Positions 3,009 to 20,592 of a DNA stretch of 64,000 nucleotides are shown here, piece after piece (within the stretch, counting starts at the first letter, position 1; every line of letters begins with the position of its first letter). The stretch lies in assembly GCA_030998225.1 (NCBI GenBank), contig JAPYXD010000608.1, positions 1,208,501 through 1,272,500 of the forward strand, written 5' to 3'. Source of the stretch: Diplolepis rosae (Eukaryota > Arthropoda > Insecta > Hymenoptera > Diplolepididae). Position numbers and translations under genes: made by a program. Under the pieces are notes generated by a model. That model saw only the letters and a program-made list of their open reading frames with translations, searched no databases and had not been told where the DNA came from.

Positions 3009-3770
3009 TGTTACGTCACAAGTACGTAAATACTTACTTTGATCGAAGATTCCTCGTTTTAAGTTAGGATCGAATGATCCTCTCTTAGGGATGAGGATAA
3101 GTCAATGAAAAGTACACAATGATTAGTAAAGTAATACAAATTGAATTTATTTAAATTAACACTGATATAAACAAGGTTAAAATTTTACAATGATTCAAAC
3201 AATGGCACAGGGAATAGGTAAAGAATAGAGAGAATTTTCGGTACCTTTGTTGAGTTGTGAATAGTCCCTTTTTTATGAATGATCCTCACAGGTGTGAGGG
3301 AGAGAGAAAGATTCTTCCACTGGTGCGACGAAGACAGCAATAGGTATCCCACTGGTGTGAGGAAGACAGAAACAAATATCCCACTGGTGTGAGGAGGACA
3401 AGAATAGTTATTTCACTCTACACTGACTCTAAGATCCTTTCAAAGATTGAAAGTACAATCAGAGAATTTACGACACGTTTCTTCGGAAAACTGAACTAAA
3501 CACGTATCTCACGCTGTGAATCCTTTTAAGATTTTAGAAATTTCCCGCACTTAATTTTGCTCACAAGACTAGTTTTCCCTTGGCGGCGTGTCCTTTTTAT
3601 ATTATATTTTTTGGTGACGTCACGCGTTGCGCAGTCTCCCGCTGCGTGTGACGTAGTTATACCTCTCTTTTCAATAGGTGGTTTTCTCTCTCTTTTAGTA
3701 ATTTCCCCAGATTTCTCTCTAGACCTAGCCTATGCCTATAGTACATTCTAATGCGTCGCGGGACGTGACA
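3009..3770 (-). repeat. 3-prime LTR of the giant retroelement
   Basis: It begins TGTTACGTCA and ends GGACGTGACA on the + strand, so in element orientation it runs TGTCACGTCC to GACGTAACA with the usual TG...CA ends. It is identical in length and apparently in sequence to 19831-20592. Four imperfect repeats of about 31 bp, each starting CAC(A/T)GGTG, lie at 3287-3412. A 64-codon open frame inside it occurs in both LTRs and is not regarded as a gene. Confidence 0.95.
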
Positions 3771-3779
3771 CCTCCCCCT
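3771..3779 (-). other. Polypurine tract
   Basis: On the - strand this reads AGGGGGAGG and abuts the 3-prime LTR, exactly where plus-strand DNA synthesis is primed in LTR retroelements. The context is otherwise AT-rich, so the purine run stands out. Confidence 0.8.
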
Positions 3780-4129
3780 AGTTCGAGCGCGGGGTGAAGC
3801 ATCCGCGATCGAATCTTCGGAAGAAGAATACATTCGTTAATGTTTTTGAAGATACATTGAATTTCTATTTCTGACGTAATAACCAACATTCATTTCGGGG
3901 TTTTTTTGATGTCATAAAAATTTATATTATCTAAATATTATAATTTTTTTTTGTTATAAATAATTACATAGTTTTTTTTTGAAATAGTATGAACTTAACA
4001 TAAGGTTACATATGATTTTTTCTTATATAACTAAATACATCAATAATTTTTATTTCATATTCGTAAATTATAAATATCATGTAATATAATAATATATAAA
4101 ACTGTAACGTAATTTCATAATGTAGATTT
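3780..4129. other. 3-prime untranslated region of the retroelement
   Basis: Between the last accessory gene and the purine tract. The first 60 bases next to the tract are GC-rich, and the rest is A/T runs. No open frame of note. Confidence 0.5.
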
Positions 4130-4577
4130 TTAAGAATTATTTTTATATTTTCTATTACGTAAAGGATTGCGGCAGTTATGAGCTAAATGCCCTCTTTGAA
4201 AACACCTTTCACAAGAGTTGGTCCATTTTTGTAAGGTTTCTTTACTGATTTCATCAGTTATTTTGAAAATTCTCGTTTCTGGGATTAAGCTTTTTTCTTT
4301 CATTTCTTCTAAAAATACATATCTTATGGAAAGCATTTCCAAGAGTTTAGATGCTGCATTTTGCTTTGCAGACTTTTTTGAGGGCTGGTTCCCCAATACA
4401 AGAGAAAGTTATTTTATTTTTAAAGATTTCGCAAGTTGCTTGGAATGGTGGCAGTTCTTGGTGTTTTCCAAGCGATTTTACAATATATGAAGGTTCGGAG
4501 AAATCATACTCAATGCTTATCTCGTTTAAAACTTGTACAGCAGTGCCTTTCGATAGGTCTCTTGTTTGCAAGGCCAT
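4130..4577 (-). pseudogene. dsRBD plus zinc-knuckle protein, frame-broken
   Basis: Two overlapping frames together describe a protein of about 145 residues: a dsRBD, then a CCHC zinc knuckle. The first frame (4577 to 4347) carries the start of the dsRBD. The second (4396 to 4130) carries the end, including KKSAKQNAA, the classical lysine-rich helix that contacts dsRNA, followed by CERCFQRGHLAHNC (C-x2-C-x4-H-x4-C). The frame moves by one base at a short G run near 4390. The same dsRBD plus knuckle layout occurs at 8025-8681, so the two are probably paralogues. dsRBD proteins bind dsRNA without sequence preference; a role in blocking RNA silencing is inference. Start chosen: the ATG at 4577. 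Confidence 0.65.
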
Positions 4578-4939
4578 TGTTTTTGATCTGCAAAAGAATT
4601 ACCTGTTTGAGTTGATGATTGAATTTATTGAAATTCTAAAGTTAGTTAGTTTTTTTTTGTAATAATTTTGTGTTTGTTGATATATTCACTTTCCGCGTTT
4701 CCTAACTCAAAGAGATATTTCATGCAGAGAAAACAGTGGTCCGTTTTTTAGAATATTTTAATTTATTAAGGTTTGTCGTTACATTATAGCGGTTAAGGAA
4801 GAAGTAGTGGTGTATATGAAATATGATTTTAAACAACGAATAAAAATAAAAAGGGAAAATTTTTTAACGAAAGTTATTAATAGATATTGTTTATATTTAG
4901 AAAAAAGAATATTAAAAAATATGTTTTGATTTATTATTT
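4578..4939. other. Non-coding spacer within the retroelement
   Basis: A/T-rich spacer between the second cysteine-rich gene and the last dsRBD gene. I see no further gene or clear signal. Confidence 0.4.
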
Positions 4940-5371
4940 TTATTCGTCGTTGTTATAAATAATAGTCGATGCTTCGGAATCGACGTCGTTATACAGTGCT
5001 TCTTGTTGGTATAAATGAATTACACGTTCGGCACAAGTTACACATAAATCTGCTCTTTGCCGCATGTAAAAAATTTGTGTATTGCAAATGGAGCAGTCGA
5101 GGCTAGATAGTTTTAATGTACAATATAAGTCTTTAGTAACTATGTGGTCTATTCGGACGGGTAATGTTACTTCGGTTTCGAAAAAGCTAAGTTCTGTCAT
5201 CCAACAATCCTCGCAAACAAGTTTTTTTTCAAGAACATTCATGTAAAAATTCTCGACCAGGGTTGTGCAGCAGTATTCTGACCATAATTGATTTTCAAAA
5301 TACGGCTGAACATCCTGCTCGCTTGCTCGAACTTCTTCTGCTTCGATTGTTTCGATTTCTTGGGGCAGCAT
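4940..5371 (-). CDS. Cysteine-rich accessory protein B
   Basis: An intact 143-codon frame, function unknown. The N-terminus is acidic (EIETIEAEEV). The body carries paired cysteines: CEDC, then CSIC and CVTC separated by 13 residues, plus an isolated YCC pair upstream. A metal-binding fold of the zinc-ribbon or treble-clef type is likely. The preceding gene (5511-5918) has the same C-x2-C-x13-C-x2-C core with an R-x-RA element before the last pair, so the two arose by duplication. There is no signal peptide or membrane segment. Both genes sit after the F-type envelope, where retroviruses often carry regulatory genes; any such role is inference. I do not recognise the family. Confidence 0.6.
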   Translation of the reverse strand: MLPQEIETIEAEEVRASEQDVQPYFENQLWSEYCCTTLVENFYMNVLEKKLVCEDCWMTELSFFETEVTLPVRIDHIVTKDLYCTLKLSSLDCSICNTQIFYMRQRADLCVTCAERVIHLYQQEALYNDVDSEASTIIYNNDE

Positions 5372-5510
5372 TTTTCTGTTGGGGAAATTTACAATATTTA
5401 AGGAATTTGAAATATTTGTAAAATTTACAATTTTTTAGTATTAAGGATTTTATTAAATTTAACAAAATTTTTCATGCGTGATTACATGCGTGGAAGGTAG
5501 ATATATATAA

Positions 5511-5918
5511 TCATGCAGGGGTATTTTCTACTAGAACTTCGTTTCCTTGACTAATTTCGAATTTATAATTTAAATATTGTTCGATACATTCTATACAATC
5601 AGCTGCTCTTTTTCGCGGAGTAATTAATAGTTCTTGACAACCGTAACAATTCATATATATGCATTCCAATTTACAAATGGAATGCCATGATGTAAAAAAT
5701 TCACAGTTATTTTGAGTTTCCTGATCTAATTTCTCGAAACAGAATTGGCAATATCTTTTTGTGGTTTGGTGATTATAATATAAAAACAATGTTGAGGGTT
5801 CTAATTCGAAGCAATAACTCTGTAATAAGTGCGCGTATGCTATCGGATAGTCTTGCGGACATACACCGTCTACTGGTCCAAGATGGTTAACAATAGGTTC
5901 ACTTGGAGTTGGTATCAT
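5511..5918 (-). CDS. Cysteine-rich accessory protein A
   Basis: An intact 135-codon frame with no recognised family. The visible layout is a short Pro-rich N-terminus, then CQFC, a middle stretch with several single cysteines (CELF-like and CKLEC), then CYGC and CIEC separated by 13 residues. The last pair is preceded by RKRAAD. The repeated C-x2-C pairs predict one or two zinc sites. It is a paralogue of the next gene downstream (4940-5371), sharing the spacing and the R-x-RA motif. The spacer between the two genes is about 140 bases. It has no membrane segment, so it is probably an intracellular protein of the retroelement. Confidence 0.6.
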   Translation of the reverse strand: MIPTPSEPIVNHLGPVDGVCPQDYPIAYAHLLQSYCFELEPSTLFLYYNHQTTKRYCQFCFEKLDQETQNNCEFFTSWHSICKLECIYMNCYGCQELLITPRKRAADCIECIEQYLNYKFEISQGNEVLVENTPA

Positions 5919-6254
5919 TTTCTACAAATTGTTAGAATAGATTTATTTTATTAAGGTCTGATAAGGAGAATGAAAAATAACTTTTTGAATATATTTTCTA
6001 ATCATGCAAGGTAAAAGATTTTGCTAAAGGTATTTTACTTTCCGTCAGAAAAACAACTTTTATATTACAGTTTGTTTTTCCTTTAGTAAGAAACATTAAA
6101 GACGTGGGTACAAAAACTGTCCTTCTGACGGTATAGGACGTTCATGCACGTGGTTTTGAGAAAGGTAAGGACGGAATGTACCTGTATCTGAAAATTTTGT
6201 GAATTGACTTTAAGTCTATTAAAGAAAAGGGTGAAAGATGGAATAAAGGAAAGG
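5919..6254. other. Spacer between F-type envelope and Cys-rich genes
   Basis: No gene supported. It includes a less AT-rich stretch around 6100-6180 of unknown role. Confidence 0.4.
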
Positions 6255-8038
6255 TCAAAAGTTAAACGTCAAGTCGGTCAGTAAAGGTTTTGTCACTGAG
6301 CTTAAAGGAGTTTTTTGTATAAGTTCTATACGTGTTGGCGTTTTGTTTATTTTTTTAGATATTTTTTGAATTTTCAATAGTAATAATCCTAAAATTGTAA
6401 TCATAAGTAAAGTGATAAAGATTAGTGCTAATGTTAATTTATGTGCACTAGAAATAAAAATTGATGGAATGATTTTTTGAATGTTTGCATATTTTTGTAA
6501 GGATAAAGACATGGTTTTCGAAGATTGATAATGGCATGTCTTCTTTTTGCTGAAGAAGAAGTAATACCTTTTTTAGTAAGTGAGGCTCTTGAATGGAAAT
6601 ATTATATAAAAATGGTGAAATTATAGCAAGGGAAGTAGTTGATTTGCTGACTGGAATTGAATTATCCATTATATTCAAATGGTTTTGAAGATGGTAATAT
6701 GGAGTTGATGAATCTAGATTGCAACCTGATTTTGTTTGCAAAATTCCTATTCCTTGGAGTGTGATTATGGTCTTAGAGTTTTTTCGACATGATAAGAAAA
6801 TTTGTCGGGGGAAAATTGTTGAGTATAGCCATCCATGATGAAATTGCAATGGTGTTAGAAAGGGATATTCGCTAAAACTGATGAATATTTTACACTTGTA
6901 TGGTTGATAATTTAGAAACATTGATGTTTCACAAATAGGATTGTTATCGATGTTAGATATAGATCTTGGTGGGTGACAAAATGTTTGGAATCCATTTTGA
7001 TAACATGCATTGAGGAAATTTTCATTTGTTATAAAGTATGATTGGTTATTTGAAGAAATAGCGAGATAAGAATTTTGAGGTTTTATGTAAATAGAGGAAA
7101 TTACGTCAGTATTAAAATCGAGATGTATTGGAATTGGATGTGGTTTAAATAATTGAAATTCTTCAGCAGATGGGATTGGTATAGTCATAATAAAAATCAA
7201 GTACTTATCGAATAAGAAGTATTGTATTTTAGAAAATGGAAGGACCATAGAAAAAAGGGATGTTGAAAGGTGTGGGTCTTTTTTTGTTGGATTTGAAGTC
7301 TAAGAAGGTATCAGGAAGTAGCATAGGGTGCCATAAATTAGTTGCGGCATGAGTAATAGCTTCTGTAAGTTGGTCAAGGAGTAAAAGAAAAGATTGAGAA
7401 ATTTCATGCAGGTCTTTAAGCCAATTTGCTGCTAATATTCGATATAGGTGAATATTTGGATCTTTTTGAGAATTATGCCATTTTTTGTAGGTCATAATGT
7501 TGTCAAGTTTTGAAGAAAGATTTGCAACTTTTTGGAAAAATGGATTAGGAAGTAGAAATAAATTTTCTTTGGGCCAGTAAAGGGAGGTTTCATTTCTCAT
7601 TCTTAATTCTAAAAGTACTTTTTGTATCTGTTGCAAGAATGGATCATTAGTGTTAGAAATATTCGTGATATTACGAGCTTGTCTAGATATAAATGATATT
7701 TCTTCAAGAAAATAGTTGATGCGTTGTTCTATAAAATCAAGTTGTGTCTGATGATCGTATAAATTACAATTATTGGCAATATTTGAGAGTATGCAATATT
7801 CATATAATTTATGTGAGAAATCTATTATTTTGTATTTAAGTACGTCTGGCTGAAAGATATCGATATAAGATATAAAATGATATTTTTCAGAAAAAAGACG
7901 AACTTTTGAAATTGGTTCAAAATAAATCCCTGAAGAATGAGAAAATTGTGAGTCTATGAAGTATTTTTCTGCTTTGGAGAAAAGGAGTGGAATTAAAATT
8001 AAATACACTCTGGATGCTAGTTGATTAAGGAAATTCAT
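6255..8038 (-). pseudogene. Baculovirus-F/Gypsy-type envelope, frame-broken
   Basis: Three frames describe one envelope protein of about 590 residues. Frame one (8038-7229) begins with a hydrophobic signal-like segment and has the GIYFEP motif followed by an alternating hydrophobic strand, as seen in insect F-type envelopes, then a long helical part. Frame two (7248-6448) holds the C-terminal ectodomain with its pattern of spaced cysteines and PIP motifs. Frame three (6512-6255) holds one strong transmembrane helix (LTLALIFITLLMITILGLL) and a short tail. The frame changes near 7240 and near 6490. No clear furin site was found; only NKKRP near the end of frame one. The family mediates membrane fusion for cell entry. 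The start overlaps the upstream dsRBD gene by 14 bases. This is a second, unrelated envelope in the same element. The family call is by motif, without a search. Confidence 0.7.
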
Positions 8039-8681
8039 TAGGCTTCTCGGAAGGCTGAAAAAGAAAAGTAGGATTAATATTGGATAAAATAGGATGTTTA
8101 CATATGGTTGGATTTAGGTCTAGAAGTTTTTTGCAGAATAGGGAAAAAAGTCTACTAAATGTTGAGGAGTTTCTTGGTGGAACTGGAGGGGGGAATTGGG
8201 TTGATTTGTCTACCTTAAAAATATTTCGTCTACGGCACTCTTTTGTAGCATGCATTTGAGTGTTACAAAATCTACAGGAATTTTCCCAAGGTATTAATTT
8301 TGGTCTTGGATCGGTTTGAATATTTTGATTTTTGGTTTTTTGCCTTTTTTTATCATCATTATTATAAAATTTTTCGTCGCAGAGATCATATGATCTTATT
8401 AGTAGTAATAATAATTTTAAAGCTGCTCTATTTTCTGCTAATTCACTAGTAGGGCCGGCTTGTATAACGAAATGTTCATTTATATTAATTTGTGCGAGAA
8501 AAAATGAGTTTGTTTTCGAATTCGGATCAGGATAGACTGTATATTGCGGTAACGGCAGTCCATATTTTATCGTGAAGTTTCTTAAAATTTCTACATGATT
8601 TAAAAATCCCATGGAGTCTGTTCTGTATTTCTTTTTTGGGTAACTTGGTACGTGTGTAGGCTCGTCGTAGTAATGCTCCAT
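8025..8681 (-). CDS. dsRBD plus zinc-knuckle protein
   Basis: An intact 218-codon frame. Residues about 27-95 form a dsRBD: an N-terminal helix, YTVYPDPNSK before the strands, and a final helix ELAENRAALKLLL. The usual lysine cluster at the start of that helix is missing, so dsRNA binding may be weak and the domain may serve for dimerisation. A CCHC knuckle follows (CRFCNTQMHATKEC, C-x2-C-x4-H-x4-C), then a Pro-rich and hydrophobic tail. It lies 77 bases after the tandem-dsRBD gene and overlaps the F-type envelope start by 14 bases. A paralogue with the same domain order is at 4130-4577. An RNAi-related or RNA-packaging role is inference. Confidence 0.7.
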   Translation of the reverse strand: MEHYYDEPTHVPSYPKKKYRTDSMGFLNHVEILRNFTIKYGLPLPQYTVYPDPNSKTNSFFLAQININEHFVIQAGPTSELAENRAALKLLLLLIRSYDLCDEKFYNNDDKKRQKTKNQNIQTDPRPKLIPWENSCRFCNTQMHATKECRRRNIFKVDKSTQFPPPVPPRNSSTFSRLFSLFCKKLLDLNPTICKHPILSNINPTFLFQPSEKPNEFP

Positions 8682-8758: not shown

Positions 8759-9457
8759 TTAAAACATTTTTTTAAAGCTTTTCGTAGAGAAAGATGATGC
8801 AGTATGATTATTATTTGTTTTCATTTTATATGAATTTGTATTTTTATCACGATTGTTATTTGAAGTAATAGGTTTTGTTATTTGGCTACTCGTTGAAGGT
8901 TTTGGATCGTTTATAGATGATTCTTGAATTGTTACATGCAAATGTTCTAGTGAGTTTATCAAACGTAGTTCACATTTCTCGTCTTTATGCGAAAGAGAAT
9001 TAATAACTTTTATGGCAGCAAAATCCTTAGCTGTTTTTATTGAGTTTGCTATTCCTATTTGTTTAATGTTATTAATGAAACAAATTGCTATGTATGTTGA
9101 GTCTTTTGATGAGGTTTTTATTCGTAATACTGTATATTTTGGATACTCAAATTTATTTTCAGTGCAAATTTCGTTTAATTTTTTGCAATTTTTACTAATA
9201 GAGTTTGGTTGGACGTTTTGATTTGTTTCCTTTGATTCATTAATTAAGGCATTATATAAATTTTGTGCTACCTTTTGCTTTACATTTTCTTTATCTTTGC
9301 CACTATTCATTATTATAAAATTTTTATATTGTAAATTAACGTGAAATAGACATTCATTATTATTGGTTTGTTCAATGAGTATCTCATAAATCAGGGGTGG
9401 ATCTCCTCTTTGTTGGATAATTTTGTTTAGTAAGGTTGTAAAAGGAACATGCGACAT
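8759..9457 (-). CDS. Tandem double-stranded RNA-binding protein
   Basis: An intact 232-codon frame with two dsRBDs. The first is at about residues 5-72 (start PFTTLLNKIIQQ, GDPPLIYEI, end KQKVAQNLYNAL). The second is at about residues 92-156 (KKLNEICTENK, YPKYTVL, end KTAKDFAAIKVINSL). The final helix of the second has the K-x-AK-x-x-AA pattern that contacts dsRNA. The C-terminal 70 residues are low-complexity Ser, Thr and Asn. Tandem dsRBDs are the layout of Loquacious, R2D2 and PACT-type cofactors of Dicer, and of several viral silencing suppressors. Acting on the host RNAi pathway is therefore a reasonable inference, not shown. The ATG lies 10 bases after the chuvirus-type envelope stop, which suggests coupled or shared-transcript expression. 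Confidence 0.8.
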   Translation of the reverse strand: MSHVPFTTLLNKIIQQRGDPPLIYEILIEQTNNNECLFHVNLQYKNFIIMNSGKDKENVKQKVAQNLYNALINESKETNQNVQPNSISKNCKKLNEICTENKFEYPKYTVLRIKTSSKDSTYIAICFINNIKQIGIANSIKTAKDFAAIKVINSLSHKDEKCELRLINSLEHLHVTIQESSINDPKPSTSSQITKPITSNNNRDKNTNSYKMKTNNNHTASSFSTKSFKKMF

Positions 9458-9467
9458 TCTGAAGATG

Positions 9468-11501
9468 TTAGATTTGGATAGAGTAGTGGGTTCTACTAAG
9501 TTCTTCTTTTAATTCAGAGTGAGGATAAAGAGTTGTGTTTGTATTATTGTGATCTTTACCTGAAGTAGTGTTTGCGTAATACGATGGACTTTTAGGTGCC
9601 TCTTTCGAGCTTTGTGGTGCTGAAGCTGTTAGCAGTTCTTGATGACTCTCAGCAGGAGGTCCAGAAGGTCGATGGGTACCTAAGTGTAATAAGAGGTTAG
9701 TGACCGAATCCCAGAAGGCGCCTAGTAGATGGAGAGACCATCCAAATAATCTGTGTAGCGCATATCCATGAATAATGGTATCAGCTATCAATTTAATCCC
9801 TCTAATTATTATTATTAATCCAATTAGGCCTGCACTAGTAGTTCCAAAACTTGTAAAAATTGTCCAAAATCTACCCCATGCGGATTCAGCAATTTTATCA
9901 ATTACATCTTCATTAAATAAATTCGTTAATGATATTCCTTGATTAATAGTTGGATGTCCTGTTATTTCTCTAGCTAAAGAATTTAGAATCATTGGTTTTT
10001 CTGCTGGAAACATAATATGATCTCGCAGTTTATCAAGATCAGATTGAGAATAAATGCCACTTGTTGCTAAGGATGAAGGATTTGTGTATTTCCAGGTTGC
10101 TTTTGTGAGAGGTTTAACTATAGTTGGTGCTATGGATTCGACAGGATTTGGAAGTAATTTGTACCAGGTTTCTCCAAAAAGGTACATTGGTGGAAGGAAA
10201 GAATTGCAATTTGTTTGGATACCTGATTTTGTTAATATATGAGTTCGTGGAGAAAGGAAAAAGGATTGATTTCCTCTAAATATTGGTAGTTGTAGATAAC
10301 ATTCTTCAGTTTTGCGATATTTTACTTCAACCGGTATACATTTTACGATATGTACTACTTCTCCTGCAATTACTGACATATATCCTGGGCCTTTCATTAA
10401 ATGATATGCAAATTCGTCTGGTGATTGGGTTGCTAAGGTTAATGTATTTCTAAAAACTTGCTGTTCAAGTATGCATCGTTGAGTAAGAACATCGTGATAA
10501 AGTCTATTTACTTCAGTGCGTATGTGTCGTTCTACATATATAAATTTAGAATTGACGTATGTGAAAATGTCCATATTTTGAACTTCTAAATGTTTATTTT
10601 CTAAAAATGAATTCCCAGGTCTGGTTTCAAAAATTAATAATTTTGGATGTTCGGTTTGTATTAAAACGTAACTGCAAACTGGTTTTCTTGTTTTTTCAGC
10701 TAGTACAAAAGTTATATCCTCAGTCGTTAAAGAATAAAAGGTTTCAGAATTGTCTGTCGTGTTGTCATAGGTCTTATTTGCTGGTCCTTCATAAATAATT
10801 TCATATTTGTTAAAATTACATACGTCATTAGGTAATGTATCCCAGAATGTTTGTCCATATTCTACGTCAGTACAGAATGTGTCTGAAAGTGTGCATATTA
10901 TTCCAGATCCTAATTGAATTTTATTTGAATTTAAATGAATAGTCGCGTAATGTTCTTGTAAAGTTATTTTGAATATTGCTTGGACTACGACATTATTCCA
11001 TGTTCCGTATGGGTCAGAAAATTGTGTACCAGTACAGTCTCCATTAGGTGTTACAGAACCTGCTAAAGTAACGCTATGAAATGAAGTTTCATTTACTTTT
11101 TTAACTTTGATATCTGAAGAGAAGGGGTTACTAAAAATGTTCCTGTTGTGTGCATTTGATTACATTGATCTCGTGTAACATCATGTATATATTCACTGTG
11201 GCCATTTGCTACTATGGAACTGTGAGAATGCATACCACAATGAGAGATGGCGCGTCGAATTTCTATTTTGCATTGTATTACTTTTGTATTTGAAAATCCA
11301 GTTAATTGTAAAAGTTGTATATAAGTTCTTTCAACATGTACTTGAGATCGAGGTAGATCACATTCTCCTACCTCTAGTAAAGATAATGTCGTAATATTTG
11401 ATATGATTTGAACCGCAATCGAATCCTATGATGGCGTAGACTGTTGTTATATAGTTGAAGTTGCAAGTGAGCAGTGCCAAAAGGAAGCCTCGTAATCCCA
11501 T
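9468..11501 (-). pseudogene. Chuvirus-type class III envelope glycoprotein, two frame breaks
   Basis: The product would be a membrane fusion glycoprotein of about 675 residues. From the ATG at 11501 come a signal peptide (MGLRGFLLALLTCNFNY) and the conserved start GFDCG. The frame moves by one base near 11395, where NITTLSLLEVGECD, a hallmark of chuvirus-like glycoproteins, is read in the neighbouring frame. It moves back to the original frame before 11093. From there it is open to the stop at 9468. The last 368 codons contain the pre-membrane helix, a membrane segment (TSAGLIGLIIIIRG), the IHGYALHRLFGWS motif and a cytoplasmic tail of about 70 residues. Both breaks lie in or near A runs, so decay or an assembly error is possible. 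Chuvirus glycoproteins are known to have been captured by insect LTR elements. Confidence 0.8.
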
Positions 11502-11620: not shown

Positions 11621-11902
11621 CTAGTTCATTATATCCAACATGTCGGCTATGACAATGTGATTTGATAGCCGTAAACTGAGAATTAAATTTTTGTATGCGT
11701 CCGGTCCTCTTGTTTTGATTGTTGAAAAAATGTCTTTTATTATTTCTGGATTGTTTAGATTTCTGTTCCATGTGGGGATATTGCAGTCGTCTTTCTTAAA
11801 AATTCCAGTTTGAATTAAGTATGGCCAGAGAGCTACCATGTCGATAAAACAGGGAACTATTTCAATGAGATCATCTATGCGTTTGCGATGAATTTGTTCC
11901 AT
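11621..11902 (-). CDS. CARD-only protein
   Basis: An intact 93-codon frame that consists of essentially one caspase recruitment domain. The N-terminal helix MEQIHRKRIDDLIEIV leads into WPYLIQTGIFKKDD. The C-terminal half has IKTRGPDAYKNLILSL and HIVIADMLD, matching the family pattern of an RGPxAF/Y turn followed by a helix ending in LA-x-x-L. In insects CARDs pair the initiator caspase Dronc with the Apaf-1 homologue Dark. A lone CARD without a caspase domain could act as a decoy, which is inference. It lies between pol (254 bases away) and the envelope (119 bases away), a position where Gypsy elements normally have no gene. I know of no CARD in an LTR retroelement, but I could not search. 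Confidence 0.75.
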   Translation of the reverse strand: MEQIHRKRIDDLIEIVPCFIDMVALWPYLIQTGIFKKDDCNIPTWNRNLNNPEIIKDIFSTIKTRGPDAYKNLILSLRLSNHIVIADMLDIMN

Positions 11903-12156: not shown

Positions 12157-15100
12157 TTACTTTTGTACTTGCACATGTGAGCGTTTTAGTCTATTAATGT
12201 GGACAACAGTAGGTTTGCCTTTATAGCTTATTTTGACATTCCCTTTTCCTAACACTTCCAATATTTCATAAGGCCCTGTATAATGGCTGTCAAGTTTTTT
12301 AATTTTTCCTCCTTTTAATAAAAACACGTAATCTCCAATTTTTACTTCTAAAGGACTTATTTTTTTGTCATAATATAATTTCGATTTTTCTTTTGCTGAA
12401 ATAAGATTTTCTCTTGCTTGTGTTCGCATTTCATGTAGTTGTGTTACGAAATTAATTAAATAATCGTCATATGTTTGTAATTTTTCTTGTTGTGATAAAG
12501 GTTCACTGGAAGGTTCACGAGCTAGTTTACCAAAAACCAATTCATAGGGTGTGCATTTTGTGCCTTCATGTACACTAGTATTATATGAGAACATTGCTAG
12601 TTCAAGCCAATCATCCCATTCTGAATTTTTTGCAACAAATTGTTTGAGATATTCTCCTAAAACATGATGTGAACGTTCTAATGACCCGTTTGATTGAGGG
12701 TGAAATGCTGTGGTACGAAATTGTTTAATTCTAAAACGTTTTGCCAATCTTTTTAATAAATTACTTAAAAAATCTCTGCCTTGGTCAGTAAGTACTCCTT
12801 TCGGTGATCCAAATATGCAAATAAATTTTTTCACGAAAGCATCTGCTATCGTACTAGCTTGGTGATTAGGAAGAGGTATTGCTAAAGAATATTTGGTAAA
12901 ATTGTCTTGTATCGTTAGAATATATAAGTTACCAGATTTTGTTTCAGGTAGTGGACCAACAATGTCCATTGATATTTTTTCAAAAGCAGTAGTGGGTGTG
13001 TCAGTGATTACCATAGGGTTTTTTGTTTTGACTCTGATTAATTTTTTCAGTTGACATTGTAAACAGCCTTGAATATATTTTTGAATGTCTACTTTCATAT
13101 TTTCCCAAAAAAATTTTTGGCGAATTCGGCTATAAGTTTTTGTAACGCCTTTATGGCCTCCTAATGCTGAGGAGTGAGCTTCTTCAATTAAATGAGTTCG
13201 TTGTTCCTTTGTTGGATATTGCGTTATTCCATTGCAAACTATAATTTTTGTAGTTGAATTTGAAAAAATTGAATCGAAAATTGATTTCACTTCTTCCCAA
13301 GGTATATGATTAATTCTGGAAGTTTTTGATATACTAATAGATCGTAATTTAAATTTTTGAGATAATTCATGTAATGAATGAATTGATAATTTTATATTAT
13401 TTAAAGTTTCAGATAAATTATCTTTAGTTTCTTCTTCAATTGGAAGTGCAAAGTGGTAGTAGTTTCCTTTTTTAATCTCTTTTGCTATCCCCTTTTGTAA
13501 ATTTTTAAATTTTGGTAAAGTTTCACGTTTTTCTAAAATTTTTGATCCGTTGTCGCGAGGAGTTCCATTTGTTGTAACAAAATATGCATAATTATCTTTT
13601 CGCATAGTTAATTGATCGCGACATTCAACTAAATTTTTCTTTGTTATAATTTTTTCTGTTTGAGAGTTTATAGGAGGAGGTTCTGGGGGTGGACGATTAT
13701 AATTATCATGATCTTTATCGATTTTTTCACAATTTATTTGAGATCTTCGGTTTAATCTCAAATTTTCTTCAAAATAAGGCTCTTCAAATTCTTCTTCCAA
13801 TTTTTCTTCTTGGTTTTCTTCAAACTTCTCATCAAAATTTTCCTCAAGATTGTCTTCAAAATTTTCTTCAAAATTCTGTTCGAAATTCTTTTCAAAATCG
13901 TCTTCAAGATCATCTGCAAAATTCTCTTCCCAATTTTCTTCATAATTTTCTCCGTCATTTCCTTCGTGTGAGGTTTCAATGTCGTTGATTTCATCTTCTG
14001 AGGTTGAAAAATAATTCTCACTTTCTTCACTTTCAAATTCATTAATATTTTTTGGCTTCTTGGCATTCTTCTTCTTTTTATTTTTGGCTTGAGTTTGTTT
14101 CAAATAATCTAAATAATCAGGATCAGAGTCGGAATCTGATTCTACTTTTGTTCGGCTTCCCTTTTGCACATTTATTTCTGGTAATTCGTTTTCAAACATT
14201 TGTTTTCTTGGCCTACCTCTCTTTCTTTTTGTTTGAGAGGGAATATTTTTCAAATTTGTAAGTAGATTTTTTCTTGGCCTACCTCGTGGTTTTTTCATAA
14301 GAGGTTTAGAAGAAAAATTTTCGTCTAATTTTTCTTGAGTTTCGTTTCGATTCAAATTTTTTGCTTTTTCTTGCTCTATTCTCTTTTGAGCTCTCGTAGT
14401 AATAGTTTTCCATGATAAATTTTCGTATTTTTTGGAAAACACTGGACTTAATAAAAATATTGTCATAAAAATAAGTCTTGAAGCCATATTTTTGAATAAA
14501 TTTGTGTATTTTAAAATATTCTTACCAATCTCACTAAATAATTCTTCACTAAGAAATTCCTGGAAATATTCTGGGATTTTTGAGTCGATATTTAATATTT
14601 GGGCTTCCGAAATTTCGCTAAAACGATCTACGTCGTCTGGTACGATTTCTGGATTCAAGTTTCTTCGTTTTGAAGGTCTTACCTCATTTTTAGAGTTTTC
14701 TTGTTTTTTTCTTGTAAAAGTTTTCTTTGAAAACATTTTTTCTTGGGAAGTCATAAAAGTATCATTGGCGTCAACTTGTAAATATCTTGATTTCTCTTTG
14801 TTATCATCAATAGGGTTTCTTGAGAGAGCGTCTGCATTTACATTCATTTTTCCTGCTTTGTAAATTACATCAAAATCATATTCTGCGAGTTTCAGTCTCC
14901 AACGTGAAACTCGTGAACAAGGGTCTTTAGAATTTTGAAACCAAACTAGAGGTTTGTGATCAGTCACTAAAGTAAATTTTCTCCCATACAAATAAGGACG
15001 AAAATGAGTTACACAAAATATTATAGCAAGAGCTTCTTTCTCATATGTATCATATTTTTTCTCAGTATCACTTAGACTACGTGAAGCATATGCTATTGGC

Positions 15101-17103
15101 TTATCTTTACCTATTTTACCTTGTGATAAAATACCTCCTATTGCAAATCCTGAGGCATCTGTTGTGAGTATAAAAGGTTGAGAAAAATCAGGTCGTTGTA
15201 AAAGTGGTTCTTCACATAATTTTGCTTTTAAAATTTCGAAAGCTGCTTGTTGTTTTTCTGTCCAATTAAAAGGTGTATCTTTTTTCAGAAGTTGATTTAA
15301 AGGACTTGCAATTTTTGAAAATCCATCAATAAATCGTCTATAATATCCTGCTAAGCCTAAAAATTGTTTAACATTTTTCTGTGTTTTTGGGACTGGAAAG
15401 TTTTTTACAGCTATTATCTTTTTTGGATCTGGACGTACTCCATTTTTATCAATTATATGACCTAAATATCCTACTTCAGGTCGTAAAAATTCGCATTTGT
15501 CTGGTTGTAAGTGAAGATTTGCTTTTCTAAGTCTTTCTGCTAAATTGTTAAATTTAATTTCGTGCTCTTCTAGAGTATTTGCATATATAACTATGTCATC
15601 GAGATATACAAAAAGTTCCGTTCCTATTAATCCAGTTAATGTTAAATCCATTAATCTTTGAAATGTGGCAGGTGCAGTTTTTAAACCGAAAGGCATTCTA
15701 TCGAATTCGTAATGACCGTGAGGTGTAGAAAACGCGGTTTTATGCGAGTCTTTTGGATCCATTTTTATATGGTGAAAACCGGTAGCTAAATCAAACACTG
15801 AAAAATATTTTGCTGATCCTAGAGAATCAAGTATATCGTTTATATTAGGTAAAGGATACGAATCGCCAATTGTTTTTTCATTTAATTTACGAAAATCAAG
15901 AACCATTCTCCATTTTATTTTTCCTTGAGAATCAGGTTTTTTAGGAACTATCCACACTGGAGTGTTATATGGTGATTGTGAGGGCTTGATTATTTTATTT
16001 TTTAATAATTCATCGACTTGTCTTGTAATTTCTTCCTTGTGAACTGGGGGAAATCTATATTGTCTTGAAAAAATTGGAGCGTCATCTACAGTTGGAATTG
16101 AATGTTGTAATACATTAGTAGCTTCAAGTGGTTCTCCTGGGATTTGAAATCTGTCTGCATTATTTTTAATTAATTTTTCTACATGTTCATATTCATCTTG
16201 ATTTAAATGGTCTAATCGAAGAAGTTTTTTAATACATTCTACTCTGTCTTCGTCTGTTACATTATAAAATTTGCATGAGTTAATTAGAGAATTGTCAGTT
16301 TTTTTTTTAAAAAAGTTATTTAATATTTTACTTGATAAATCTTCGTTATTTGTTTGTTTGAAATTAATTAAATTTTCAATTTGTTTATAGCATTCTTGTT
16401 CTTCAAAGTCTTCTAAATTAACTAATGGGACGGATAATGTAATTGGGATTTCATTTGTGTTTGCAAATTTTAAATAAGCTTTTCCTCTGTGATTTTTTAC
16501 AACTGCGTCACCTACGTAGACGCCATCTTGGATATGTAATCGAGGTACATACCCTTCACTCTTTTCTGTATTTTTTATATTAACATAAAATGTTGTAACT
16601 GTTCGAGCTGGAATAGTAAATGTATTGGCAGATTTAAAAGGGTAACAGTGGTTCTCAATTTCTAAGCATTTTGAAGTATAGTTTATATTCACACTATTAT
16701 CTTGAAAAAATTCTGATCCTAATACTCCATCTTCTTCTACTGGGACTTCATTGGGAATAATGTTAAATATCGTTGGATAACCAAAAATGTTTATTTTTAC
16801 CTGTCCTAACGTGTAAAGTGGTAAATCATTAATTCCTGTAAGTTTCAATACGTTTTGGCTATTTATGGGTAGTTCAGGGTTGAGAACCTTTTGTTTAATT
16901 AAATTTCGAGCAGCACCAGTATCAATCATCATGTGTGTTGGATTTTTTAGACCTTCCGTTGATATTATAATTGATGGAATTGAAGTGGACTTTGAAATAT
17001 TTATTGTTGTTGTTGTATGATCGTTAGAAGTGGATGCCAGTGGTTCTCGATTTATGCTTTCCTCAGTGCACCCGTGCTGGGGAGAGCTTTGGAGTTTTCC
17101 TGA
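12157..17103 (-). CDS. pol: Pol polyprotein: protease, RT, RNase H, spacer, integrase
   Basis: This encodes the enzymes for reverse transcription and integration. It is open from 17103, just after a stop in this frame, and overlaps gag by 52 bases in the -1 frame. The first ATG is at 16932; residues below count from it. Protease: DTGA at 4-7 and GVLGSEFF near 69. Reverse transcriptase: Asp381 and YLDD at 443-446. RNase H: Asp592, Glu633, Asp658, Asp701. Spacer 706-1235: signal-like hydrophobic run 816-832, AT-hooks at 881-888 and 902-910, Asp/Glu-rich repeat about 964-1057, macro-like segment about 1105-1235. Integrase: zinc site His1253, His1260, Cys1290, Cys1293; catalytic Asp1323, Asp1383, Glu1419 (D-x35-E); GPYEIL at the C-terminus. 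The 1591 codons exceed the usual 1000-1200 because of the spacer. No stops or frame breaks. Confidence 0.97.
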   Translation of the reverse strand, partial: SGKLQSSPQHGCTEESINREPLASTSNDHTTTTINISKSTSIPSIIISTEGLKNPTHMMIDTGAARNLIKQKVLNPELPINSQNVLKLTGINDLPLYTLGQVKINIFGYPTIFNIIPNEVPVEEDGVLGSEFFQDNSVNINYTSKCLEIENHCYPFKSANTFTIPARTVTTFYVNIKNTEKSEGYVPRLHIQDGVYVGDAVVKNHRGKAYLKFANTNEIPITLSVPLVNLEDFEEQECYKQIENLINFKQTNNEDLSSKILNNFFKKKTDNSLINSCKFYNVTDEDRVECIKKLLRLDHLNQDEYEHVEKLIKNNADRFQIPGEPLEATNVLQHSIPTVDDAPIFSRQYRFPPVHKEEITRQVDELLKNKIIKPSQSPYNTPVWIVPKKPDSQGKIKWRMVLDFRKLNEKTIGDSYPLPNINDILDSLGSAKYFSVFDLATGFHHIKMDPKDSHKTAFSTPHGHYEFDRMPFGLKTAPATFQRLMDLTLTGLIGTELFVYLDDIVIYANTLEEHEIKFNNLAERLRKANLHLQPDKCEFLRPEVGYLGHIIDKNGVRPDPKKIIAVKNFPVPKTQKNVKQFLGLAGYYRRFIDGFSKIASPLNQLLKKDTPFNWTEKQQAAFEILKAKLCEEPLLQRPDFSQPFILTTDASGFAIGGILSQGKIGKDKPIAYASRSLSDTEKKYDTYEKEALAIIFCVTHFRPYLYGRKFTLVTDHKPLVWFQNSKDPCSRVSRWRLKLAEYDFDVIYKAGKMNVNADALSRNPIDDNKEKSRYLQVDANDTFMTSQEKMFSKKTFTRKKQENSKNEVRPSKRRNLNPEIVPDDVDRFSEISEAQILNIDSKIPEYFQEFLSEELFSEIGKNILKYTNLFKNMASRLIFMTIFLLSPVFSKKYENLSWKTITTRAQKRIEQEKAKNLNRNETQEKLDENFSSKPLMKKPRGRPRKNLLTNLKNIPSQTKRKRGRPRKQMFENELPEINVQKGSRTKVESDSDSDPDYLDYLKQTQAKNKKKKNAKKPKNINEFESEESENYFSTSEDEINDIETSHEGNDGENYEENWEENFADDLEDDFEKNFEQNFEENFEDNLEENFDEKFEENQEEKLEEEFEEPYFEENLRLNRRSQINCEKIDKDHDNYNRPPPEPPPINSQTEKIITKKNLVECRDQLTMRKDNYAYFVTTNGTPRDNGSKILEKRETLPKFKNLQKGIAKEIKKGNYYHFALPIEEETKDNLSETLNNIKLSIHSLHELSQKFKLRSISISKTSRINHIPWEEVKSIFDSIFSNSTTKIIVCNGITQYPTKEQRTHLIEEAHSSALGGHKGVTKTYSRIRQKFFWENMKVDIQKYIQGCLQCQLKKLIRVKTKNPMVITDTPTTAFEKISMDIVGPLPETKSGNLYILTIQDNFTKYSLAIPLPNHQASTIADAFVKKFICIFGSPKGVLTDQGRDFLSNLLKRLAKRFRIKQFRTTAFHPQSNGSLERSHHVLGEYLKQFVAKNSEWDDWLELAMFSYNTSVHEGTKCTPYELVFGKLAREPSSEPLSQQEKLQTYDDYLINFVTQLHEMRTQARENLISAKEKSKLYYDKKISPLEVKIGDYVFLLKGGKIKKLDSHYTGPYEILEVLGKGNVKISYKGKPTVVHINRLKRSHVQVQK
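13227..13620 (-). other. Macro-domain-like segment in pol
   Basis: About 130 residues just before the integrase zinc site. YAYFVTTNGTPRDNG, then YYHFALP, then ISISKTSRINHIPWEEV and FSNSTTKIIVC follow the order and spacing of small ADP-ribose-binding macro domains of the OARD1 type. In those, a Gly-rich loop sits where TSRINH is here. That binding loop is not conserved, so the fold may be kept without the activity. A comparable segment may exist in other Gypsy lineages; I could not check. Confidence 0.5.
13620..14814 (-). other. Pol spacer insert: AT-hooks and acidic repeat
   Basis: This part of pol, between the RNase H end (NADALSRNP) and the macro-like segment, has no counterpart in ordinary Gypsy pol. 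It encodes a hydrophobic stretch resembling a signal peptide (MASRLIFMTIFLLSP, from about 14487), two AT-hooks (KPRGRPRK and KRGRPRK), a Lys-rich run, and about 90 residues in which EENF-like units repeat. AT-hooks bind the minor groove of AT-rich DNA, so targeting of integration to AT-rich chromatin is one possible role. This is inference. Confidence 0.8.
17052..17103 (-). promoter_or_regulatory. gag-pol overlap, probable -1 frameshift region
   Basis: The gag and pol frames overlap by 52 bases, bounded by a TAA in the pol frame (17104-17106) and the gag TAA (17052-17054). Pol must be entered here by a -1 shift. The best candidate is G GAA AAC just inside the overlap, which is not a perfect X XXY YYZ heptamer. 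No clear downstream pseudoknot was found by eye. Confidence 0.6.
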
Positions 17104-18917
17104 TTAGCTGTTTGTGATTGGTTATTTGGTCGTATCTTGCAGTCTCGTACTAAATGACCGGGTTGTTTACAGTAATTGCAAATTATTTCAGTATAATTTG
17201 AATTTTGTTGAGTGTTATTATTTTGTAAAAATCTATTTTCATATGGTTTATTTCGATTTTGAGACTGTCCTAAGTTAAAGTTTTGATACTGTCCTGGATT
17301 CCATTGTCTATTATTATTATTAACATTATTGTTATTATTGTAAAAATTTCTAGGAAAATTGTTATTATTGTTGTGTCTTTGTTGTAAAACATTATTATTA
17401 TTGTTTTTATAATTATTATTTCTATTTTGCAAATTATTATTGTTATTGTTATTAAAATTATGATTTTTATTTCTTAAAAAATTGTTATTCGAAAAATTAT
17501 TGTAATTGTTTCTTGCAAAATTATTATTATTATTACTTCTTTGACCATTGAAATTACTATATCCTTGTTGGTTAGGACGCAACAAAAAATTTTTTTGTTT
17601 ATTATTAAAAACTGCATCTTGAGCTTTACTTAAATGAAAACATTTTTCAGTTGTGTGACCTGGTTTTTTACAAATTAAACAAATAGTTTTGTTTTCAAGT
17701 GCTACGTTAAATCGGGTTGTTTTGTTATTTTTATTATTAGATGATTCGTCACTTTTTGAATAATCCATATTTTTATTTCTTCGTAGTGCGGAATTTGCAG
17801 CTAATCTTCGTTCTATATCAATACTGTCGCTAATAACTTCTTTAAAAGTATCCTTTTCTTCAACACGAATTTCCAACTCAGGACGCAAACCGCGTATAAA
17901 ACATTGAATTACGTCTTTTTCAAGGTTTACTTTAAAATTATTATCTACCTGACCATTATTATTGAGCCTGTGAGCATCTTCGATTTTGTCGGCAATTTCT
18001 TTTATCCTAGCAGCATAGGAAAGTACATTTTCTCTTTCCCACATAAATGTATTACCTAATTCTCCCTGTAACTGGTACACGCTTTTCGCAGGGGCATATA
18101 CTCTTTTCAATTTTTCTATCAATTCTTCTATTGTTGTATAAGTAGAACCAAAAATGCATTTTCTGGCTTCTCCAGTTAATTTACCTCTTAATAGCCTTGC
18201 GAGGTTTTCTTGAGCTGCAGGTGTCGGTAGCATTGCCTTTGCCTCCATGCAACCCTCAATAAAATGTGACAATGGGAGGTTACTTCCGTCAAACAATGGG
18301 ACCACCTCTAGCGCGTCGCGTAAGGATACCTGCTGGCTGTTGGGTATGACCACGGCCATCTCTTCGTTATTTACTCTTACGGGATTATCCTGATTTATGG
18401 CTTCTGTGTCGCTTTTGTCGTCGTCGCTATCGTTGTTACTAATTATAGATTCGCGTGCCAATGAGGTTTCCAATCTTTCTTTCAAAGTTTTATTATCTAC
18501 TGTTATTACTGTTGAGCTTAGCAAATTGAATTCGTCAAAATAAGATAATTCATTCGTTAGAGTTTGATCTTGATTACTGGATCCTGTTACAATGCTTAAA
18601 TCTGGACAGAAACTTGAATGAAAGCCGCTAGTTTTTTCTGAATTTTCACGTGATATATTTTGATTATTAATTAGAGTCTTGTCTAAACTTGAATCATCTA
18701 ACTTAAGAGTGTTATCTAATTCTTGTTCTGTAGGGATTGGATCAGGGATATTTTGGCATTTATTATCAGTTGAATATTCTCTATTTCTAATTGGTTTTAT
18801 TTTTAAATTACCCTTTTGATTCAAATCTACTATTTTTGCAAGCTGACTATCGTGTTTAGCTTGACTACGTGTTATAACTTTCGGGGTAGATTCTAAAGGG
18901 ATATTTGGTTTTGACAT
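17052..18917 (-). CDS. gag: Gag polyprotein
   Basis: The 621-codon frame encodes the structural protein that forms the particle and packages RNA. The N-terminal 190 residues are polar and disordered. Residues about 195-385 form the capsid region (VSLRDALEVVPLFDGS, LTGEARKCIFG, VIQCFIRGLRPELE). Two CCHC zinc knuckles follow: CLICKKPGHTTEKC at 413-426 and CNYCKQPGHLVRDC at 580-593. They are separated by about 140 residues dominated by Asn (many runs of three to eight). Most envelope-bearing insect errantiviruses lack such knuckles, so this lineage differs from classical gypsy. The frame is intact. The start is the only ATG near the end of the leader and leaves an 881-base gap to the primer site. 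Pol follows in the -1 frame. Confidence 0.95.
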   Translation of the reverse strand: MSKPNIPLESTPKVITRSQAKHDSQLAKIVDLNQKGNLKIKPIRNREYSTDNKCQNIPDPIPTEQELDNTLKLDDSSLDKTLINNQNISRENSEKTSGFHSSFCPDLSIVTGSSNQDQTLTNELSYFDEFNLLSSTVITVDNKTLKERLETSLARESIISNNDSDDDKSDTEAINQDNPVRVNNEEMAVVIPNSQQVSLRDALEVVPLFDGSNLPLSHFIEGCMEAKAMLPTPAAQENLARLLRGKLTGEARKCIFGSTYTTIEELIEKLKRVYAPAKSVYQLQGELGNTFMWERENVLSYAARIKEIADKIEDAHRLNNNGQVDNNFKVNLEKDVIQCFIRGLRPELEIRVEEKDTFKEVISDSIDIERRLAANSALRRNKNMDYSKSDESSNNKNNKTTRFNVALENKTICLICKKPGHTTEKCFHLSKAQDAVFNNKQKNFLLRPNQQGYSNFNGQRSNNNNNFARNNYNNFSNNNFLRNKNHNFNNNNNNNLQNRNNNYKNNNNNVLQQRHNNNNNFPRNFYNNNNNVNNNNRQWNPGQYQNFNLGQSQNRNKPYENRFLQNNNTQQNSNYTEIICNYCKQPGHLVRDCKIRPNNQSQTANQENSKALPSTGALRKA

Positions 18918-19798
18918 TGAGTCATTATAAATTTACAATATTTTGTATTGAGCGTTGATTGTTTATTGTTATTTTAAATTTGTTTATAACAATAAAAAAA
19001 AACTATATATAAAATTTGTTTTTTAAGAAAAATAAAATGAGATTAGTAAAATTTATTTTTAATTTGTTTATTTATTTTTAATAACAATATAATTTGAAAT
19101 GAAATTTGTATTTCGTCATTTGAAAATAAAATAATGATATAAAAATATAATTATTTCAAATATTCAAATTAAATAAATAATCGCTCAATTGTTTGTAAAT
19201 TTATAATTTTTAATAATAAATTTCTTAAAATAATAAAATATTTTTCTTTACCAACTGCATGTGCCCTTTATGTAAAATTAAAATAATTTATTTTATTTAT
19301 TTATAAATTGTTTATAACAATTAAACAAATTTGTTTATAATAATGATCATTAGAAATATTCATAAATTATTTTTATTATATTGGAAAAGTTAACTTAAGT
19401 GCAAATCTTTGGATAAAATTTTTTTTTTTGCAAATAAAAATATTCTGTTTTTTTTTATGTTTGTTTTAACTTAAATCAAAACTTGGTTAACAAATTAGAA
19501 TATCTTTTTAAATAAGATAAGTTACTTAATCACTTAGGTTAGCCTCAAGGTCAGATCCCTGCGTGATTTTTCAAACTTATTTTATTTTTAAACAATTTAT
19601 ATAAATTATAAAATTTCAAAGAAATGATCTGATTATTAAATCATTAAGGTTAGCCTCAAGGTCAAATCCCTTTGTGATCTAACAAATCTATTTTATTGAA
19701 ATTTTAAGTTTTAAAGTTGAAATAATATTTCATAATCATTTATTTATTTATTTATTTATTATTAAGAACCAATGTGTTCAATTTCAATTGACTTGTGT
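18918..19798 (-). other. Retroelement leader (5-prime untranslated region)
   Basis: An AT-rich leader of about 880 bases between primer site and gag. It contains a direct repeat of about 40 bp: GGTTAGCCTCAAGGTCAGAT around 19528-19572 and GGTTAGCCTCAAGGTCAAAT around 19640-19680. Its role is unknown; packaging signals normally lie in this region. Confidence 0.6.
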
Positions 19799-19816
19799 TT
19801 CCCGGCCGATGCACCA
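19799..19816 (-). other. Primer binding site for tRNA-Gly
   Basis: The + strand reads TTCCCGGCCGATGCACCA, 18 bases identical to the 3-prime end of insect tRNA-Gly including CCA. On the element strand this is TGGTGCATCGGCCGGGAA. It lies 14 bases inside the 5-prime LTR, whereas primer sites usually start 0-5 bases from the LTR. Confidence 0.85.
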
Positions 19817-19830
19817 GAAAAAAGAAAGTA

Positions 19831-20592
19831 TGTTACGTCACAAGTACGTAAATACTTACTTTGATCGAAGATTCCTCGTTTTAAGTTAGGATCGAATGAT
19901 CCTCTCTTAGGGATGAGGATAAGTCAATGAAAAGTACACAATGATTAGTAAAGTAATACAAATTGAATTTATTTAAATTAACACTGATATAAACAAGGTT
20001 AAAATTTTACAATGATTCAAACAATGGCACAGGGAATAGGTAAAGAATAGAGAGAATTTTCGGTACCTTTGTTGAGTTGTGAATAGTCCCTTTTTTATGA
20101 ATGATCCTCACAGGTGTGAGGGAGAGAGAAAGATTCTTCCACTGGTGCGACGAAGACAGCAATAGGTATCCCACTGGTGTGAGGAAGACAGAAACAAATA
20201 TCCCACTGGTGTGAGGAGGACAAGAATAGTTATTTCACTCTACACTGACTCTAAGATCCTTTCAAAGATTGAAAGTACAATCAGAGAATTTACGACACGT
20301 TTCTTCGGAAAACTGAACTAAACACGTATCTCACGCTGTGAATCCTTTTAAGATTTTAGAAATTTCCCGCACTTAATTTTGCTCACAAGACTAGTTTTCC
20401 CTTGGCGGCGTGTCCTTTTTATATTATATTTTTTGGTGACGTCACGCGTTGCGCAGTCTCCCGCTGCGTGTGACGTAGTTATACCTCTCTTTTCAATAGG
20501 TGGTTTTCTCTCTCTTTTAGTAATTTCCCCAGATTTCTCTCTAGACCTAGCCTATGCCTATAGTACATTCTAATGCGTCGCGGGACGTGACA
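19831..20592 (-). repeat. 5-prime LTR of the giant retroelement
   Basis: Same length and apparently the same sequence as 3009-3770. In element orientation it starts at 20592 with TGTCACGTCC and ends at 19831 with GTAACA. It carries the promoter (20415-20444) and four 31-bp repeats (20109-20234). Confidence 0.95.
20415..20444 (-). promoter_or_regulatory. LTR promoter: CRE-like site and TATA box
   Basis: On the - strand TGACGTCA (20437-20444), the palindromic CREB/ATF site, is followed after about 10 bases by TATAATATAAAAAG (20415-20428), a strong TATA box. Transcription would start some 25-30 bases further on, near 20390. The same pair is in the 3-prime LTR at 3593-3622. Confidence 0.65.

What the first reader, a model, noticed from the sequence alone, without database searches (positions are those of the whole stretch)
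3009..20592. A 17.6-kb virus-like Gypsy element with eight accessory genes
Seen: identical 762-bp LTRs, GTAG duplication, intact gag and pol, then about 8 kb of further genes on the same strand in compact order. Known: insect errantiviruses carry one extra gene, env, and total 7-9 kb. Inference: this is a retroelement that has gathered a virus-like gene set for entry, RNA binding and cell-death control. It could be the best candidate here for an undescribed system.
Basis: partly seen in the sequence, partly recalled or inferred. Interest (0 to 1): 0.96.

Follow-up and report, generated by a model that had tools for sequence, protein, structure and literature searches.

The report
Complex insect retrovirus with two envelopes
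This 17.6-kb Gypsy-type retroelement, likely from an insect of the ant, bee and wasp order, carries eight extra genes beyond the usual two (some broken in this copy), including two unrelated viral entry genes, predicted blockers of RNA silencing and a predicted cell-death adaptor, so it would be an insect counterpart of the complex retroviruses.

Summary
A minus-strand Ty3/Gypsy element at 3009-20592 has identical 762-bp LTRs, a GTAG duplication, open gag and pol, and about 8 kb of further same-strand genes: a CARD-like protein; a Jingchuvirales-type (chuvirus) fusion glycoprotein; two dsRNA-binding genes; a baculovirus-F/errantivirus-type env; two related Cys-rich proteins; and a third dsRNA-binding-like/CCHC gene. 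So the block up to F env travels with the element. Relatives are many (52 for CARD, 42 for dsRBD1; 57-99% identity). One survey states it found no clear capture of such a glycoprotein by Gypsy (PMC10084718, passages). Cautions: in this copy the glycoprotein, F env, dsRBD1 tail and dsRBD3 are broken by frame changes while gag-pol is open; RNAi suppression and cell-death control are inferred from domains; no splice donor or slippery site was found; the host genome search did not complete (15 of 15 tries), so host and copy number are unknown.

The parts
19831..20592 (-). 5' LTR (element reads on the minus strand)
   Evidence: 762/762 identical to the other LTR, TG...CA ends, GTAG on both outer flanks
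19801..19816 (-). likely primer-binding site, 14 nt after the 5' LTR; by recall it matches the 3' end of tRNA-Gly(GCC)
   Evidence: sequence printed; the tRNA label is recalled and comes from no call
17052..18917 (-). gag, 621 aa, one CCHC zinc knuckle
   Evidence: zf-CCHC 21.2 bits, cutoff 20.8
12157..17103 (-). pol (protease DTGA, RT YLDD, RNase H, H2C2 zinc-binding and DDE integrase); about 500-aa charged insert with two AT-hook-like motifs between RNase H and integrase
   Evidence: best solved relative Ty3, E=1.5e-126
11621..11902 (-). CARD-like protein, 93 aa
   Evidence: 52 homologs; Pfam CARD at E<=1 in 27 of 34 aligned members, best 1.3e-5; predicted fold resembles Apaf-1, caspase-9, MAVS and Dronc CARDs
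9468..11501 (-). Jingchuvirales (chuvirus)-type fusion glycoprotein; open 11159-9468, N-terminal part in other frames
   Evidence: PF24664 E=3.6e-203 for 11159-9474 and 1.3e-32 for 11425-11099; tblastn of P0043 in frames -3/-1/-3
8759..9457 (-). dsRBD1, 232 aa, two dsRNA-binding stretches; tail truncated by a frame change compared with relatives
   Evidence: PF00035 E=5.2e-11, 2 stretches; 42 homologs
8025..8681 (-). dsRBD2, 218 aa, with a CCHC-spaced motif seen by eye
   Evidence: PF00035 20.6 bits, below the 23-bit cutoff; TARBP2 E=0.016; linked to dsRBD1 in other copies
6258..8113 (-). baculovirus-F / errantivirus-type env in three frame pieces (8113-7232, 7299-6451, 6572-6258; the last has a hydrophobic stretch)
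   Evidence: PF12259: second piece E=7.6e-20 (71.5 bits, cutoff 24.1), first piece E=6e-4 (19.0 bits, below cutoff); none on the third
5511..5918 (-). Cys-rich protein 1, 135 aa, C-x2-C-x13-C-x2-C
   Evidence: no family match
4940..5371 (-). Cys-rich protein 2, 143 aa, related to protein 1
   Evidence: BLASTP E=0.001 for the pair, 10/36 identical; only weak Pfam rows below cutoff
4130..4598 (-). dsRBD3-like gene with CCHC, split over two frames
   Evidence: 4408-4136: zf-CCHC_3 1.1e-4 (22.5 bits, cutoff 27) and dsrm 0.034, both below cutoff; upstream piece has no Pfam match and shares 9/17 residues with dsRBD1, E=0.011
3771..3779 (-). likely polypurine tract next to the 3' LTR
   Evidence: purine run directly before the 3' LTR
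3009..3770 (-). 3' LTR

Best explanation
This is a Ty3/Gypsy retroelement that carries eight extra genes downstream of pol, among them two unrelated viral entry genes, and it likely behaves as a complex insect retrovirus. Shown: one LTR-bounded unit with open gag-pol, and a CARD / chuvirus-type glycoprotein / dsRBD1 / dsRBD2 / F-env order that recurs in predicted ORFs of other copies. Inferred: gag and pol are translated from the full-length RNA by a frameshift, and the accessory genes from spliced RNAs, with acceptor-like sites just upstream of GP, F and Cys1. The glycoprotein is the main entry protein; F env is a second or superseded one. The dsRBD proteins bind the element's dsRNA and would blunt Dicer-2/siRNA silencing. 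The CARD protein would act on the Dark-Dronc apoptosome, most likely to hold off death of the producing cell. This copy is a recent insertion that keeps gag-pol open but has lost several accessory frames.
Confidence: 0.6

Rival explanations
1. The accessory genes are passengers: a retroelement picked up viral and host cDNA once, the genes spread by hitch-hiking and are now decaying, and the element moves inside cells with gag-pol alone.
For: At least six frame changes in the accessory half against none in gag-pol. Several other copies are internally deleted. LTRs identical although the entry genes are broken.
Against: 24 of 52 CARD relatives are exactly 93 aa, down to 58% identity. GP relatives P0043 (682 aa) and P0044 (593 aa) are open at 62% and 68% identity. 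Full-length dsRBD1 relatives at 80-85% identity keep their Cys-containing tail. Database ORF lists favour open frames, so this is not decisive.
Confidence: 0.25
2. The frame changes are assembly errors; the real copy is fully open and this is a currently infectious virus.
For: LTRs identical. A 99% identical dsRBD1 relative with 9 members is open at the place where the window is broken.
Against: Errors should fall about equally on gag-pol, of similar length, which has none; with six breaks an even split gives about 0.5^6 = 0.016 (my arithmetic).
Confidence: 0.2
3. Nested insertion: an unrelated viral block sits by accident in one ordinary Gypsy copy.
For: None found.
Against: Collinear gene joins in other copies; the flanks share only A/T-rich words of 10-11 bases.
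Confidence: 0.03

Closest known systems
Errantiviruses / env-bearing insect Ty3/Gypsy elements (Metaviridae)
   Same: Ty3-type pol order, F-type env downstream of pol, short target duplication
   Different: 17.6 kb; seven further genes including a second, unrelated fusogen; gag has a CCHC knuckle; about 500-aa insert in pol
Anakin, mosquito BEL/Pao element with chuvirus glycoprotein (PMC7642597, passages)
   Same: LTR element with a Jingchuvirales-type glycoprotein
   Different: Backbone is Ty3/Gypsy, not BEL/Pao; also has F env, CARD, dsRBD and Cys-rich genes
Endogenous Jingchuvirales glycoproteins of Hymenoptera (PMC10084718, passages)
   Same: Same glycoprotein family; Gypsy fragments reported beside them in Hymenoptera
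   Different: That paper states it found no clear capture by Gypsy; here the gene lies inside LTR bounds and recurs in linked order
Iridovirus IIV-6 340R, dsRBD suppressor of RNAi (PMC4231766, abstract)
   Same: Virus-borne dsRNA-binding protein in an insect-type host
   Different: Homology to 340R itself not tested; here three dsRBD-type genes in a retroelement, activity untested
Complex retroviruses (lentiviruses, foamy viruses; recalled)
   Same: gag-pol plus several accessory genes, some against host defence
   Different: A different set of genes in a Ty3/Gypsy lineage

Membership tests
Ty3/Gypsy (Metaviridae) | LTRs with TG...CA and short target duplication | tested here: met
   TG...CA, GTAG 4 bp
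Ty3/Gypsy (Metaviridae) | pol order protease-RT-RNase H-integrase | tested here: met
Ty3/Gypsy (Metaviridae) | pol closest to Ty3 among solved structures | tested here: met
   7q5b E=1.5e-126
Ty3/Gypsy (Metaviridae) | place in an RT tree | not tested
Errantivirus | baculovirus-F-type env downstream of pol | tested here: met
   E=7.6e-20 for the middle piece; frame-broken here
Errantivirus | gag without CCHC array (stated for several errantiviruses, PMC2774666 passage) | tested here: not met
   zf-CCHC 21.2 bits, just above the 20.8 cutoff
Errantivirus | single extra gene, 7-9 kb (from the finding; recalled) | tested here: not met
   17,584 bp, eight extra genes
Anakin (BEL/Pao + chuvirus glycoprotein) | BEL/Pao backbone | tested here: not met
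   Ty3 best; no BEL/Pao reference compared directly
Anakin (BEL/Pao + chuvirus glycoprotein) | Jingchuvirales glycoprotein inside LTRs | tested here: met
   PF24664 E=3.6e-203
Troyka | 3-bp duplication and CG...CG ends (PMC12440569 abstract) | tested here: not met
   4 bp, TG...CA
Caspase recruitment domain | six-helix death-fold domain matching CARD profiles | tested here: met
   moderate confidence, the window's own score is below cut-off
Caspase recruitment domain | CARD-CARD interaction with Dark/Dronc | not testable with these tools
   needs binding assay
dsRBD suppressors of RNAi | dsRNA-binding domain | tested here: met
   dsRBD1 E=5.2e-11; dsRBD2 20.6 bits (cutoff 23) and dsRBD3 below cutoff
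dsRBD suppressors of RNAi | blocks Dicer-2 or siRNA loading | not testable with these tools
   needs assay

The most novel reading that the evidence does not exclude
A complex retrovirus evolved independently in insects from Ty3/Gypsy. It carries two fusogens of different families, three dsRNA-binding proteins against RNAi, an apoptosome-directed CARD protein and Cys-rich regulators, and expresses them by splicing; loss of these genes in single copies marks the passage from infectious virus to intracellular transposon.
Probability: 0.45. Interest if true: 0.92.

Novelty: new variant of a known kind. Interest (0 to 1): 0.83.

Why it matters
Insect Gypsy retroviruses are known with one extra gene, env (from the finding; recalled). 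This lineage gathered a gene set that parallels the accessory genes of complex vertebrate retroviruses: a CARD-like gene (one literature search named CARD and LTR elements together; none of the 20 listed of 193 papers had that in its title or shown abstract lines), and a chuvirus-type glycoprotein whose capture by Gypsy a survey did not clearly find (PMC10084718, passages). It makes testable whether retroelements in animals with siRNA and piRNA immunity evolve their own silencing suppressors, and how envelope replacement proceeds, since two unrelated entry genes sit in one element.

Tried and rejected
Rejected: Troyka (wrong termini and duplication); BEL/Pao-Anakin (Ty3-like pol); nested unrelated insertion; an endogenous negative-strand virus by itself (the glycoprotein lies inside LTR bounds and is joined to element genes in other copies).

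Led nowhere: three viral-contig scans with the glycoprotein piece, dsRBD2 and the glycoprotein alignment confirmed nothing. tRNA and Rfam scans of the window were empty. The Cys-rich pair gave no family, and its predicted model is too poor to search (pLDDT 35). The single-sequence PDB search for the CARD gave only weak rows, to a designed protein and a WD-40 protein; the profile search gave designed repeat proteins first (E=0.00021, 0.013) and Dronc third at E=0.79. The PDB search with the dsRBD1 alignment gave nothing at E 0.1. The dsRBD3 upstream piece gave nothing and the glycoprotein piece three weak unrelated rows. No slippery heptamer in the gag-pol overlap and no donor-like site in the leader. 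Literature: ten searches, of which I saw the listings (titles and first lines of abstracts); none of the listed titles or lines reports a Gypsy element with this gene set. Of papers I saw: abstract and outline of PMC12440569 and PMC4231766; passages of PMC10084718, PMC7642597, PMC13172572, PMC2774666; a word search of PMC12992720 with no occurrence of accessory, sORF or similar. The library misses most subscription papers, and Chary and Hayashi 2025 on env-bearing Gypsy across animals, cited in PMC13172572, did not come up.

Full report
OBSERVATION. The element lies on the minus strand, 20592 to 3009. Its LTRs (19831-20592 and 3009-3770) are identical over 762 of 762 bases, begin TG and end CA, and are flanked by GTAG on both outer sides. 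A sequence 14 nt after the 5' LTR looks like a primer-binding site (by recall, for tRNA-Gly), and a purine run precedes the 3' LTR. gag is an open frame of 621 aa with one CCHC knuckle. pol is open from 17103 to 12160, overlapping gag in the -1 frame (my arithmetic; no slippery heptamer was found there), and holds protease, reverse transcriptase, RNase H and integrase motifs. Its best solved relative is Ty3 (E=1.5e-126). Between RNase H and integrase lies an insert of about 500 residues, 20% acidic, with two RGRPRK AT-hook-like motifs (the AT-hook label is recalled).

THE EXTRA GENES. The 8.4 kb after pol carry 8 ATG ORFs of at least 130 aa on the coding strand. The mean in 300 dinucleotide shuffles is 0.013 and the maximum 1. 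One of the eight (11771-11358) overlaps CARD and the start of the glycoprotein and is not counted as a gene. From pol outwards: (1) 11902-11621, a 93-aa CARD-like protein. (2) A Jingchuvirales-type fusion glycoprotein, PF24664 at E=3.6e-203 for the long piece and 1.3e-32 for a piece in another frame. (3) 9457-8759, two dsRNA-binding stretches, E=5.2e-11. (4) 8681-8025, a weaker dsRNA-binding match (20.6 bits, cutoff 23) with TARBP2 as best solved relative (E=0.016) and a CCHC-spaced motif seen by eye. (5) 8113-6258, baculovirus-F/errantivirus-type env in three frames: E=7.6e-20 for the second piece, 6e-4 and below cut-off for the first, no such hit for the third. (6, 7) 5918-5511 and 5371-4940, two related Cys-rich proteins sharing C-x2-C-x13-C-x2-C. 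(8) 4598-4130, a dsRNA-binding-like and CCHC gene over two frames, all scores below Pfam cut-offs.

DOES THE BLOCK MOVE WITH THE ELEMENT? The own-genome search did not complete (15 of 15 tries), so I used protein relatives. dsRBD1 has 42, CARD 52, and the glycoprotein 504, of which 120 are listed: 214 listed in all. Of these, 17 were mapped back to the window, some chosen because their length, domain label or letters suggested a fusion. Eight of the 17 join neighbouring genes in the window's order and strand: integrase to CARD (P0207, P0210, P0214), CARD to glycoprotein (P0211), glycoprotein to dsRBD1 (P0041), dsRBD1 to the start of dsRBD2 to F env (P0011), and dsRBD1 to dsRBD2 (P0035, P0042). 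P0037, read but not mapped, shows the last join too. Several of these are internally deleted copies. The other nine of the 17 map within one gene or its flank. In addition, the CARD relative P0203 (58%) and the open 682-aa glycoprotein relative P0043 (62%) report the same longest-contig length, 12245, so they probably share a contig. Caveat: contigs are short and of unnamed origin. The flanks of the block share only A/T-rich words of 10-11 bases. Cys1, Cys2 and dsRBD3 were not tested for linkage.

GLYCOPROTEIN HISTORY. In a tree of 47 rows (the window's one-frame piece, P0041, and 45 of the 120 listed) the window groups with P0041, P0053, P0043 and P0044 at 100/100. Among the listed relatives that carry an organism name, most are ants (ants by recall of the genera), with a sawfly (Athalia), a parasitoid wasp (Venturia) and a hymenopteran chu-related virus. 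This is why the host is likely hymenopteran; nothing else names it. A published survey saw Gypsy fragments beside such glycoproteins in Hymenoptera but stated that it found no clear capture by Gypsy (PMC10084718, passages). The capture described there and in PMC7642597 is by BEL/Pao in mosquitoes (passages). A 2026 paper calls the chuvirus proteins type III fusion glycoproteins (PMC13172572, passage); that F proteins are class I is recalled.

BREAKS. The glycoprotein maps to frames -3, -1 and -3 and the dsRBD1 tail to another frame; F env lies in three frames and dsRBD3 in two. That is at least six changes in the accessory half against none in gag-pol. An even split would give about 0.016. Open relatives exist at the dsRBD1 tail and for the glycoprotein. 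Either the accessory genes were dispensable for this copy's last move, or proteins came from other copies, or some breaks are sequencing errors.

MECHANISM. Shown: unit structure, domains, linkage as far as F env. Inferred: full-length RNA for gag-pol; spliced RNAs for the rest. Acceptor-like sites lie just before GP (11504), F (8183) and Cys1 (5958). All 8 such coding-strand sites of the internal region are in the accessory half, but 8 also occur on the opposite strand, and 3 of 8 starts with one within 100 nt has P about 0.02 (the starts used for GP and F were 11501 and 8113). No donor-like site was found. Silencing suppression is proposed by analogy with IIV-6 340R (PMC4231766, abstract). 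The apoptosome role follows from the CARD fold only, and its direction (block or trigger) is a guess.

VERDICT. A real and unusual element: a Ty3/Gypsy retroelement with two unrelated fusogen genes and a set of predicted counter-defence genes. I rate it a new variant of a known kind.

Noticed in passing
window 13348-14832, within pol: About 500-residue charged insert between RNase H and integrase with two RGRPRK AT-hook-like motifs (14286, 14220) and an acidic block; could steer integration or be an extra Gag-Pol domain.
   Followed up: partly
window 19522-19697: Two 65-bp direct repeats (82% alike) in the leader between the 5' LTR and gag; possibly a packaging or regulatory signal.
   Followed up: no
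window 3317-3417 and 20139-20239: Repeats with 32-bp spacing inside each LTR.
   Followed up: no
window 22139-23146 and 28626-29459: Mariner-type transposase ORFs (Transposase_1, HTH_48) near the element.
   Followed up: no
window 23470-23893: Diverged direct repeats with spacing of 162-177 bp.
   Followed up: no
listing: 504 relatives of the glycoprotein; those with organism names among the 120 listed are hymenopteran, mostly ants, plus one chu-related virus of Hymenoptera. Which of them lie in LTR elements is open.
   Followed up: no
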